Notes: generated by a model from the sequence alone, not told the origin. 64,000 bases of DNA from Planctomycetota bacterium (GCA_024229395.1 JAAESM010000042.1:62001-126000); one strand, 5' to 3'; positions 47,396 through 60,840 are shown, counted from the first letter of the stretch. Translations and numbers: made by a program.

Positions 47396-48763
47396 GTGAA
47401 TCCCCGCGCAATGCTGGCTGCTGTTTGCAGCTTGTTCATCCTGTTTTCTAGCCACGTTCAGGCCCAAGATTCAGGATATTCCCGCACCTACGTAATCCAG
47501 GCCGACGGTGCTTGGGTCGCTCCCGGTGTCCACATCACTCCTGCTTTCGTCAAAGTTAGCGCAGGCGAGATCGTTTGGGTAAGTTCCACCGATCAACGCC
47601 AGGAGCGCACCAGCTTGCTAGGCAAGAAGAGCAAGGATCCATTGATCAAGGTCAAGGGAACGCTCGCGCCTGGCTTGGTCGATGCTTGGACCACCATGAT
47701 GCCAACCGGCTACTCGGGTGACCGTAATACGCGCTCCACACGAGCTGTGTCGGATTCGCTGCCCATGCAAGTGGCCAACGAAGACGAATCGCTGGTCAGC
47801 CAAGTGTTGGCCGCACGGCAAGCTGGGGTTGCTGCAGTGTTCATGTCAGCTGGCCGCAATGGCTGGCAGCGTGGCGTCGGCACAGCAGCTGAGTTCACCA
47901 AGTTGGATTTGCCACAGGCTGTCGGCGAGGGTGTGTTGGAATTTGCGGTAGGAGCGCAAGCCAACGGCGGACTAGACCGAACTTACATAATCGATGAGGT
48001 CGAGGCCGTGTTCTCCGAAGCAAACGGCTGGCGCGATTCCTGGGATGACTTCGATGAGGCCAAGGAAAAGTACGCCAAGGACTTGGAGAAGTATGAGGAG
48101 AAGCTGAAGGAGTACATCGAAGAGAAGAAGAAGTTCGATGAAGAGGCTGAGAAAGCCGGCGCTCAGAAGGAGGGTGATAAGAAGAAGGAGCCCAAAGCAC
48201 CGAAGCGCCCCAAAGTTCCCATGGAGCCGCAGACCAGCGCCGCGCGCGATCTGATCCTGGGAGCCATCGACGGCAAGTACCTGGTTCGCGTTCACGCCGA
48301 TAGCGTCGGCGATATCAGGCGAATCATCGCCTTGAAGAAGGAATACGGCTTGGATTTGGTCATCATTGGCGGAGGCAGTGCTGATCTGCTCGCAGATGAC
48401 TTACGCAAGGCCAGCATCGGAGTCGTCCTGCCTCTTGGCGGTGATCTCCATGCCGCGCCGAATGCTGAGCGCAGCTTGGCGAAGCGTTTCTCCACCTTAG
48501 TGGACGGGGGAGTCGATGTGGCTCTCGCCAGCAGCGGTGCAGAAGGATTGCACATGCTTATGCTGACCCGCGCCGGCGAGCTTGTTGCCGCCGGATGCGA
48601 CAAAAACAAGGTGTGGGACTCGTTAACCATCGTTCCCGCCCGCCTGCTTGGCCTAGATGGCTATGGCAGCCTGCATCGTGGCAAGAGCGCCACGATGGTT
48701 CTGTTTGAAGGCACTAGCCCCTTCGACGCTTCCGCACCCATGAAAGCCCACAAGCCGAAGTAG
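47396..48763 (+). CDS. Exported amidohydrolase-fold protein 1 (HxH lost), K/E-rich helical insertion
   Basis: Signal peptide; TLAPGLVDAWTTMM replaces PGxxDxHxH; IVPARLLGLDGYGSLHRGKSATMVLFEG C-terminal family motif. Confidence 0.8.
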   Translation: MNPRAMLAAVCSLFILFSSHVQAQDSGYSRTYVIQADGAWVAPGVHITPAFVKVSAGEIVWVSSTDQRQERTSLLGKKSKDPLIKVKGTLAPGLVDAWTTMMPTGYSGDRNTRSTRAVSDSLPMQVANEDESLVSQVLAARQAGVAAVFMSAGRNGWQRGVGTAAEFTKLDLPQAVGEGVLEFAVGAQANGGLDRTYIIDEVEAVFSEANGWRDSWDDFDEAKEKYAKDLEKYEEKLKEYIEEKKKFDEEAEKAGAQKEGDKKKEPKAPKRPKVPMEPQTSAARDLILGAIDGKYLVRVHADSVGDIRRIIALKKEYGLDLVIIGGGSADLLADDLRKASIGVVLPLGGDLHAAPNAERSLAKRFSTLVDGGVDVALASSGAEGLHMLMLTRAGELVAAGCDKNKVWDSLTIVPARLLGLDGYGSLHRGKSATMVLFEGTSPFDASAPMKAHKPK

Positions 48764-48765
48764 TC

Positions 48766-57967: not shown

Positions 57968-59308
57968 ATGATGCTCGCCTCAATGCTTCTTCTCATGCCG
58001 ACGGCACTGCCCGTCGCGCAAGAACCTACGCGTGATCCGGTCGGACGCGCAACCGTCTATCGCTTCGACACCATCGAGACTCTCGATGGCGAGGCGCTCA
58101 AGAACGTCACCATGCTGGTCCGCGATGGAATCATCGAACGGATGGGCCAAGCCGTGGTGGTGCCGGATAACGCCGAAGTCCATGACTATCGCGGTACCGG
58201 CAAGGTCGCCATGCCACCGTTCGCGCTGACGCATGCAGATTTCCTGCACAGCGATCGTCGCGGCGGCGGGCGTAATGCTCGTTTCCTCGCAGCTGATTCC
58301 CTGTGGCTGGCCGAGGACTGGGCCAATGACCTGCTTGAAGAAGGCATCCTGATGGTCGGTATCGACCCTCCCGGAAATGGCATGCCTGGGCGCACTTCGG
58401 TGTTGCTCGCCGACGATCAAGTCGGAGTGCCGAATCCGTTGGTTGCCGATCTTCATCTGAAGGTCGACGTGAAGGGTTCTTCTTCGTCGAAGCGCTTGGT
58501 GCGTGATGGCCTGAAGGCTGCCGATAAGGCGATCAAGAACGAGGAGAAGGCCAAGGCTGACTGGGAAAAGGCGCGTGCCGATTGGGAGGCTGCGCAGAAG
58601 AAGAAAGCCGAAGAGGCCGAGGCCGCCAAGAAGAAAGGCGAGAAGCCTGCAGCTGCCCAAGATGGCAACGGCAAAGGCAAAGATGACAAGGAGCCACCGA
58701 AGGAGTTCACTGCTCCGAAGATGGATCCGAACATCGAACCTCTGGTGGACTGGGTGCGCAAGGAACGCGTCGCGCAGATCTGGCTCGGTTCGGCTGCGGA
58801 TTGGTTGCACTGGCAAGACCTGTTGGGCGAGCGCGAGTTGCCTTATCAGATCGTCTTGCGTCACGGCAACAGTCAGAACTTCCACGAGGTGGTCGACCAG
58901 ATCGCCGCGACTGGATTGCGCGTCGACGTTGCAGCAGGTATTTCCTACTTGCCTTACACACGCACACGCGTGAACCTGCCTGCCGAACTGAAGGCCGCAG
59001 GCGTCGAGAAGATGATCTTGTCACCACGTTCGACGAACCTGACTGGCATCCAAAGCTTTCGTTTGTCGGTCGCACAAGTCGTCGCCGCAGGGCTTGACCG
59101 TGACATCGCACTACGTGGCATGACCTTGGAGCCTGCCGCATCGATGGGCCAGGAAGAGCTCATCGCGCCGTTGGCCGTTGGTGCACCAGCGACCTTCGTG
59201 ATTTGGAGTGGTGATCCACTCGACCCCATGACGGAAGCCATGCAAGTGTTGTCCGAAGGGGAAGTCCTCTACGATCGTGTCAAAGCCGAGAAGGAGGAAC
59301 AACGATGA
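57968..59308 (+). CDS. Exported amidohydrolase-fold protein 8 (HxH lost), K/E/A-rich helical insertion
   Basis: VAMPPFALTHADFLHSDRR; EEKAKADWEKARADWEAAQKKKAEEAEAAKKKGEK; GQEELIAPLAVGAPATFVIWSGDPLDPMTEA. Confidence 0.8.
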   Translation: MMLASMLLLMPTALPVAQEPTRDPVGRATVYRFDTIETLDGEALKNVTMLVRDGIIERMGQAVVVPDNAEVHDYRGTGKVAMPPFALTHADFLHSDRRGGGRNARFLAADSLWLAEDWANDLLEEGILMVGIDPPGNGMPGRTSVLLADDQVGVPNPLVADLHLKVDVKGSSSSKRLVRDGLKAADKAIKNEEKAKADWEKARADWEAAQKKKAEEAEAAKKKGEKPAAAQDGNGKGKDDKEPPKEFTAPKMDPNIEPLVDWVRKERVAQIWLGSAADWLHWQDLLGERELPYQIVLRHGNSQNFHEVVDQIAATGLRVDVAAGISYLPYTRTRVNLPAELKAAGVEKMILSPRSTNLTGIQSFRLSVAQVVAAGLDRDIALRGMTLEPAASMGQEELIAPLAVGAPATFVIWSGDPLDPMTEAMQVLSEGEVLYDRVKAEKEEQR

Positions 59309-60840
59309 AAAACCTAACTCGTTTCTTGTTGATGGCAGCTGCTGTTTGGGCGCTGCAAGTTCCACTGGCCGCAGCGAGCTTCGCTCCACAGGATCCACCG
59401 CCCGAGCCGGAGCCTGTTCCGGAGGTCGAGGAGCCGGAAGAAGAGATCATCGAAGAGGTGATCGAGGAGCCGGTCGTTGTCGATCAAGAGCCCGGCGATG
59501 AGGAAGTCGCAGAAGAAGAGGTTGTCGAGGAGGTCGTCGAAGAAGAGGTTGAAGAAGAAGACCCCAACGCCGTCGATCCGAACAGCCCTTACTTGGCGAT
59601 CTACGGTGGTGACATTCACACCGTGACCGATGGCGTGATTCGTCGCGGCATCGTGTTGTGCAAGAACGATCGCATCCTGAAGGTCGGCAAGAAGATTCGC
59701 ATTCCAAAAGGCGCTCGTCGTATCGACGCCCACGGCATGCAGGTCTATCCCGGTCTGGTCGGTGTCGATACTTCGGGTATCGTCAAGGGCCGCGGTACCT
59801 CCTTGCGTGATGACTTTGATCCTTATGCGTTGAACCTGGATCTGGGTTTGGCTGGTGGCTTGACCATCGTGCAGACCGGCAACGCCATGGCGAAGCTGGC
59901 GCGCGGCACCCTGGATGGGGTGCTGGTCGGACAGACCGGTTGGGTCAACTTGGGTTACTCGAGCACCTCACCTGGTGGGCGTCGTCAGCTGCGTGAAAGC
60001 ATGCGCAAAGTGCGTGACTACATGCGCGAGGTTCGCAGCTGGGAAACCGATAAGGCAATGGGCGAAGACGTCGGCGAGGAGCCATCCTCGAAGGGCATCA
60101 ACGGTGGTCACTTGGCCCTGCTGCAAGGCAAGGCGATGGCCCGTTTCAACGCCAACTCCTTGAAGGATTTGCTGTCGGTCTGTGACTTCCTTGAGGAGTA
60201 CCCAATGCAGTCGGTCATCTTCGGCGGTCAAGAGGCTTGGGCATGTGCCGGTCGTTTGGGCCGTGTCGGTGCTCAGATGGTGATCACTCCACGTGCCAAG
60301 GCTTGGGCTGACCAGACCTTGAATGCGCCAAGTGGTTGGTCGATCGAGAACGCCAAGATCCTTTGGGAGCATGGCGTGCCATTCTCGATTCTGCCGCAAG
60401 AGCGTTGGATCACCACTGGTGGTCTGGCTGGTCGCGACATGTTGACCTTGCCTATGGAAGCGGCCTTCGCGATTCGCGGTGGTCTGCCTCAAGATGCTGC
60501 CTTGCGCGCACTGACTTTGGATGCAGCCAAGATCCTCGGTGTTGAGGATCTTGTCGGTTCGGTCGAACCTGGCAAGGATGCTGACTTGATCATCTGCGAT
60601 GGCGACTTGTTCCACTACCGCACCTTCGTGCAGTGGTCAGTGGTCAACGGCAAGATGGTCTATGACAAGGAAGCTGCGCCTTACTTCGCGCATATTCGTC
60701 CACGTCAAGTCGCTTCTTTCGAGGAAGTGATGGAAGAGATTGAGCGCGCCATCACCGAGACCGATGAAGAGGTAGGGCTGACGGATGTCGCCGAAGCACC
60801 TGCCATCGACGCACCAGAAGAAGTGGCCGATAGCGAGTAA
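59305..60840 (+). CDS. Exported amidohydrolase-fold protein 9 (HxH lost), acidic N-terminal linker
   Basis: Signal peptide then E/V/P-rich tract; VYPGLVGVDTSGI; DAAKILGVEDLVGSVEPGKDADLIICDGDLFHYRTFV. Confidence 0.82.
   Translation: MKNLTRFLLMAAAVWALQVPLAAASFAPQDPPPEPEPVPEVEEPEEEIIEEVIEEPVVVDQEPGDEEVAEEEVVEEVVEEEVEEEDPNAVDPNSPYLAIYGGDIHTVTDGVIRRGIVLCKNDRILKVGKKIRIPKGARRIDAHGMQVYPGLVGVDTSGIVKGRGTSLRDDFDPYALNLDLGLAGGLTIVQTGNAMAKLARGTLDGVLVGQTGWVNLGYSSTSPGGRRQLRESMRKVRDYMREVRSWETDKAMGEDVGEEPSSKGINGGHLALLQGKAMARFNANSLKDLLSVCDFLEEYPMQSVIFGGQEAWACAGRLGRVGAQMVITPRAKAWADQTLNAPSGWSIENAKILWEHGVPFSILPQERWITTGGLAGRDMLTLPMEAAFAIRGGLPQDAALRALTLDAAKILGVEDLVGSVEPGKDADLIICDGDLFHYRTFVQWSVVNGKMVYDKEAAPYFAHIRPRQVASFEEVMEEIERAITETDEEVGLTDVAEAPAIDAPEEVADSE

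What the first reader, a model, noticed from the sequence alone, without database searches (positions are those of the whole stretch)
47396..60840. Nine-gene, translationally coupled operon of exported amidohydrolase-fold paralogues (about ten modules)
Seen directly: nine consecutive plus-strand genes with ATGA, GTGA or TAATG overlaps or gaps of at most about 18 nt, each carrying the amidohydrolase beginning and ending motifs (PGxxD..., ...GLxxxxGSLxxGxxADLVLWxxDP), and nearly all with a signal peptide. Single exported amidohydrolases or pairs are common; nine in one operon is striking. It suggests a hetero-oligomeric extracytoplasmic complex or a family of dedicated peptide/cyclic amide hydrolases.
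Basis: partly seen in the sequence, partly recalled or inferred. Interest (0 to 1): 0.87.

Follow-up and report, generated by a model that had tools for sequence, protein, structure and literature searches.

The report
Operon of mostly dead amidohydrolases
Planctomycete bacteria keep, across a whole phylum, one operon of nine related exported enzyme-like modules of which only one kind still has an active site, which suggests a large mixed-subunit complex outside the cytoplasm built around a single enzyme.

Summary
In detail: nine plus-strand, overlapping genes (47396-60840), ten amidohydrolase-fold modules, export signals, one terminator. The interpretation needs one decisive change: this is not nine enzymes. 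Only genes 6 and 7 keep the metal site (HxH, K, H, H, D); that module type keeps all six ligands in 153 of 153 sequences. The other eight module types have lost it, while their fold motifs stay among the most conserved positions and dN/dS is 0.03-0.12. Each module forms its own clade in the trees, so the duplications predate those classes. Copy number varies only for the active module (1-5). Neighbouring modules are fused in different lineages (m1-m2, m4-m5, m8-m9), and m5 is always a fusion. Best explanation: an exported hetero-oligomer in which eight pseudo-amidohydrolase modules scaffold or gate one amide/peptide hydrolase. One active type among eight dead ones is shown by sequence; the complex and the substrate are inferred. 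I found no report of this system in the open-access papers searched.

The parts
47302..47395 (+). 94-bp intergenic space shared with a divergent LpxA-like acyltransferase gene; presumed promoter region
   Evidence: no sigma-70-like match found here
47396..48763 (+). m1: exported pseudo-amidohydrolase with a charged arm in the beta4-beta5 segment
   Evidence: (no position keeps its ligand in most of 70 orthologues)
48766..49860 (+). m2: exported pseudo-amidohydrolase (keeps all six ligands in one relative, L051)
49857..51302 (+). m3: exported pseudo-amidohydrolase; conserved RRPxTRMG motif; start corrected to ATG 49857
51311..52660 (+). m4: exported pseudo-amidohydrolase with acidic beta4-beta5 insertion; keeps one His and the Lys position only
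52657..53940 (+). m5N: first pseudo-amidohydrolase module of the two-module gene m5 (52657-55560)
53941..55560 (+). m5C: second pseudo-amidohydrolase module of m5
54388..54555 (+). 56-residue helical arm inserted in m5C (residues 578-633)
   Evidence: model; charged segment in 96% of orthologues
54646..54960 (+). eight-strand beta domain inserted in m5C (about residues 664-768, GxW motif)
   Evidence: model; similar GxW-containing insert visible by eye in the 1440-aa protein
55557..56753 (+). m6: catalytic-type exported amidohydrolase, ligands H82 H84 K163 H227 H253 D308
   Evidence: 153/153 keep all six
56753..57949 (+). m7: second catalytic-type copy, complete metal site
57965..59308 (+). 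m8: exported pseudo-amidohydrolase
58481..58633 (+). 51-residue helical arm of m8 (residues 173-223)
   Evidence: model
59305..60840 (+). m9: exported pseudo-amidohydrolase with acidic N-terminal extension
60885..60916 (+). intrinsic-terminator-like hairpin after the last gene

Best explanation
The operon encodes one exported hetero-oligomeric enzyme. Nine amidohydrolase-fold module types arose by duplication before the planctomycete classes examined here diverged. One type (m6/m7, 'cat') kept the binuclear-metal site and does the chemistry, most likely hydrolysis of a peptide-like or cyclic amide bond; its relatives include Xaa-Pro/Xaa-Arg dipeptidases and imidazolonepropionase. The other eight types lost the site and now act as structural or gating subunits, each at its own position, some carrying long charged arms that may hold the assembly together. 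Overlapping genes would give co-translation and fixed stoichiometry. Shown from sequence: the operon, the fold, loss of ligands in eight types and retention in one, purifying selection, ancient shared order. Inferred: export, physical assembly into one complex, scaffold/gating roles, substrate.
For: Metal ligands: cat keeps all six in 153/153; in m1, m2, m5N, m5C, m8 and m9 most sequences keep 0-1, in m3 0-2, in m4 mostly 2. Ligand positions fall to the 15th-33rd conservation percentile in m1, m2, m5N, m5C, m8, m9 (59 and 70 in m3, m4), while fold-motif positions stay at the 90th-98th. dN/dS of every gene against two near relatives is 0.03-0.12. Order identical in 71 distinct complete loci and 29 truncated ones, no reordering. 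m4 in 149/154 genomes of the class, 53/53 of the good ones. Module clades are single (one stray m1 in the larger tree) and mirror each other. Only cat varies in number, 1-5 copies. In-frame fusions of neighbours: m4-m5 (L106), m8-m9 (L153), m1-m2 (L157, L158); m5N-m5C always. Simpler relatives pair or fuse one intact HxH module with inactive ones. Precedent: CRMPs, dead amidohydrolases keeping two of six ligands, prefer heterotetramers (PMC4051505); the related ochratoxinase is a homo-octamer (PMC11342369).
Against: No physical interaction was measured and no multimer could be modelled. Fusion and operon conservation also fit a pathway without a stable complex. m3 and m4 keep moderately conserved pocket residues, so some 'dead' modules may bind ligands or a single metal. 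Export rests on a hydrophobicity heuristic. The whole-m5 model has pTM 0.68, so the packing of its two modules is not reliable.
Confidence: 0.62

Rival explanations
1. The pseudo-modules are exported binding proteins: their pockets have been repurposed to capture different peptides or small amides and hand them to the single hydrolase, without a stable fixed complex.
For: Intermediate conservation of the ligand positions in m3 and m4 (percentiles 59 and 70); conserved non-ligand motifs such as RRPxTRMG in m3 and EAW/RGGL in m9.
Against: In six of eight types the former active-site positions are among the more variable ones, unlike a conserved binding pocket; order, single copy number and neighbour fusions are more than loose co-function needs.
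Confidence: 0.2
2. Nine or ten active exported amidohydrolases with different substrates, clustered for co-regulation.
For: All hit amidohydrolase families.
Against: Eight of nine module types lack the metal ligands. The conserved pair of His at strand 1 is gone in nearly all.
Confidence: 0.04
3. The modules have evolved a new chemistry in the same barrels (for example mononuclear metal or metal-free catalysis), so the operon is a multi-step extracytoplasmic pathway.
For: m4 keeps one strand-1 His (63/80) and the Lys (75/80); m8 keeps Asp in 68/94; mononuclear amidohydrolases exist (established knowledge).
Against: No conserved replacement set of ligands at the equivalent positions in m1, m2, m5N, m5C or m9.
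Confidence: 0.08
4. Recent tandem expansion of no lasting function.
For: All modules are related; cat copies do expand.
Against: Same order in several classes, single clades, dN/dS 0.03-0.12.
Confidence: 0.01

Closest known systems
TM0814-type amidohydrolase, Thermotoga maritima (PDB 3ooq)
   Same: Closest solved relative of m6 (E 3e-40, full length, all six ligands) and best fold match of the m8 and m5 models.
   Different: A single intact protein; no function reported in the papers searched; no dead partners.
Xaa-Pro / Xaa-Arg dipeptidase and ochratoxinase-like amidohydrolases (Cc2672, 3mkv, 3n2c, ADH3, AnOTA)
   Same: Same superfamily and metal-site type as the cat module; ochratoxinase is a homo-octamer (PMC11342369).
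   Different: Homo-oligomers of active subunits; m6 scores 73 bits against a cut-off of 500 for the Xaa-Pro dipeptidase model, so it is not a member.
CRMP / dihydropyrimidinase-related proteins
   Same: Amidohydrolase-fold pseudoenzymes that lost metal ligands and form hetero-oligomers (PMC4051505).
   Different: Animal cytosolic proteins, tetramers of up to five paralogues; not exported, no operon, a distant branch.
Eukaryotic 20S proteasome beta ring
   Same: Works alike if the complex is real: an ancestral homo-oligomer became a set of paralogues of which few remain active (established knowledge).
   Different: Unrelated fold and chemistry; not a family relation.
Two- and three-module planctomycete amidohydrolases (for example the 1440-aa protein on contig C33 of the same genome)
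   Same: One intact HxH module joined to inactive modules; similar beta-domain insert.
   Different: One or two genes, two or three modules instead of nine or ten.

Membership tests
Amidohydrolase superfamily (PF01979/PF07969), cat modules m6 and m7 | TIM-barrel amidohydrolase sequence family | tested here: met
   (m6 E 2e-12; m7 6e-05 but below the curated cut-off), full-length match to 3ooq for m6
Amidohydrolase superfamily (PF01979/PF07969), cat modules m6 and m7 | Metal ligands HxH, K, H, H, D | tested here: met
   153/153 sequences
Amidohydrolase superfamily, pseudo-modules m1-m5, m8, m9 | Fold | tested here: met
   hhalign to cat, probability 100, E 1e-42 to 1e-57; models of m8 and m5
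Amidohydrolase superfamily, pseudo-modules m1-m5, m8, m9 | Metal ligands | tested here: not met
   one m2 (L051) keeps all six
Xaa-Pro dipeptidase (NF051886) | Curated score of the NCBI model | tested here: not met
   m6 73 bits, cut-off 500
Imidazolonepropionase HutI (TIGR01224) | Curated score of the NCBI model | tested here: not met
   m6 51 bits, cut-off 298
Stable hetero-oligomer | Physical association of the products | not testable with these tools
   indirect only: fusions, fixed order
Exported (Sec) proteins | Cleavable N-terminal signal | tested here: inconclusive
   hydrophobicity heuristic only: about 90% or more of orthologues for every gene but m1 (42/70); in internal segments 2-19%

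The most novel reading that the evidence does not exclude
A phylum-wide extracytoplasmic enzyme assembly of nine or more different amidohydrolase barrels, one catalytic type and eight pseudoenzymes, in which a homo-oligomeric hydrolase became a fixed hetero-oligomer, as happened in the proteasome, with a new and possibly essential role in planctomycete periplasmic peptide or amide turnover.
Probability: 0.45. Interest if true: 0.88.

Novelty: new variant of a known kind. Interest (0 to 1): 0.77.

Why it matters
Databases call these proteins 'imidazolonepropionase-like amidohydrolase' or 'hypothetical', which hides that most cannot be such enzymes. If the complex is real, it is an unusually large case of pseudoenzyme-dominated hetero-oligomer evolution in bacteria, kept across a phylum known for its odd, enlarged periplasm, and with intermediates still visible (intact pairs, fused pairs, an m2 with its site still intact). 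It makes the question of why a homo-oligomer becomes hetero-oligomeric testable.

Tried and rejected
Recent tandem array: rejected by order, trees and selection. A conserved non-amidohydrolase partner gene that would name the substrate: flanks are conserved only within lineages (LpxA-like, AhpC, glycosyltransferase-3 in the window's family; ScpB, SNZ or FG-GAP genes elsewhere), so none found. Substrate from closest relatives: 3ooq has no reported function in the papers held and NCBI models stay far below cut-off. First module-order count split some modules into two hits and could miss loci; redone. A profile of m5 was too variable for the contig scan; the cat profile was used. Literature search found no description of the system; this covers open-access papers only. 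Inter-protein coevolution was not attempted: too few independent loci.

Full report
Observation. The m3 start should be ATG 49857, giving an ATGA overlap with m2. Gene 5 has two modules, so there are ten. All match amidohydrolase families, m8 only weakly, but profile comparison and an AlphaFold model of m8 (mean pLDDT 89.8; best solved match 3ooq) settle its fold. The m5 model shows two barrels, a 56-residue helix and an eight-strand beta domain inserted in the second.

Their type ('cat') keeps H82, H84, K163, H227, H253 and D308 in all 153 sequences collected. Mapped by profile-profile alignment, the other eight module types (m1, m2, m3, m4, m5N, m5C, m8, m9) have lost it: in most types the typical sequence keeps zero or one of six; m4 typically keeps two (one His and the Lys). 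The mapping at the first strand is anchored by the PG motif; the positions in later strands are less sure, and one could not be aligned in each of m4, m5N, m5C and m9. The former ligand positions sit at the 15th-33rd conservation percentile in six types and at 59 and 70 in m3 and m4, while positions that hold the fold stay at the 90th-98th. All nine genes are under strong purifying selection against two near relatives (dN/dS 0.03-0.12). So these are maintained proteins whose barrels are conserved and whose active sites are not.

Distribution. Of 61 close genomes all had a P0009-like match, and the 40 loci fetched show the same operon. m4 is found in 149 of 154 genomes of the window's class, 53 of 53 good ones. 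Named contigs are nearly all planctomycete MAGs, including Phycisphaerae and Pirellulales; a few titles say Bacillota or Vicinamibacteraceae, but these sequences nest among planctomycetes, so I take them as mislabelled. Over the phylum, m9 at E <= 1e-60 occurs in 37 of 151 genomes sampled evenly (28 of 89 good ones), in many families outside the class, so the full system is near-universal in one class and patchy elsewhere. Protein searches returned planctomycete or unnamed entries, with one Myxococcota label; these listed only the best 120 of capped candidates, so absence elsewhere is not shown.

Order and age. Among 110 distinct loci with at least three modules, 71 show exactly m1 m2 m3 m4 m5N m5C cat m8 m9 with one to five cat copies, 29 are contiguous pieces cut by a contig or fetched end, and 10 differ only by a split or remote module label or are the three-module protein; none is reordered. 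In trees of 213 and 71 modules each type forms its own clade, apart from one m1 sequence in the larger tree, and branching inside the clades is alike. The duplications therefore predate the sampled classes. Junction overlaps of 4 nt recur across families.

Hints of physical association. m5 is a permanent fusion. Other neighbours are fused in single reading frames in other lineages: m4-m5 (L106), m8-m9 (L153), m1-m2 (L157, L158). Five types have highly charged beta4-beta5 segments (m1, m4, m5C, m8, m9), modelled as a long helix in m5C and m8. Only the active module varies in copy number. Simpler planctomycete systems consist of one intact module plus one or two inactive ones, as two genes or one fused protein; the window's own genome has such a 1440-aa protein. 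In one relative (L051) m2 still has all six ligands, and deeper lineages have m2 with an intact HxH, which suggests gradual loss.

Mechanism. I take it to be an exported hetero-oligomeric amide/peptide hydrolase, with one catalytic type and eight non-catalytic types at fixed positions. Precedents are CRMPs, dead amidohydrolases that prefer hetero-oligomers (PMC4051505), and homo-octameric relatives of cat (PMC11342369; several eight-chain entries). The proteasome is an analogy of working only. The substrate is unknown: NCBI models for dipeptidases and imidazolonepropionase stay far below cut-off, and no conserved neighbour gene names it. Export rests on a hydrophobic N-terminus.

Limits. No interaction, transcript, metal or activity data exist here. 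No multimer modelling was possible, and the literature search covers open-access papers only.

Noticed in passing
G000 contig C33:158063-162385 (-), locus L171:5064-9386: A 1440-aa protein in the same genome with three amidohydrolase modules, only the middle one with an HxH motif, and a GxW-type insert like that of m5; similar ORFs of about 1460-1580 aa occur in other planctomycetes.
   Followed up: partly
L051 (m2), L153 and L157 (m2): m2 still carries all six ligands (L051) or an intact HxH (L153, L157): apparent intermediates in the loss of activity.
   Followed up: partly
L106, L153, L157, L158: Neighbouring operon genes fused in frame in different lineages.
   Followed up: yes
window 62490-63476 (+): A predicted protein with a dual-specificity-phosphatase-like part and a C-terminal cytochrome c'-like match, an odd pairing.
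   Followed up: no
window 61416-62444 (+): Glycosyl-transferase-family-3-like protein with a weak catalytic-domain match, downstream of the operon and conserved there only in the window's family.
   Followed up: no
G211 contigs C339 and C63: One genome appears to hold two copies of the system, one with m1-m2 fused.
   Followed up: no
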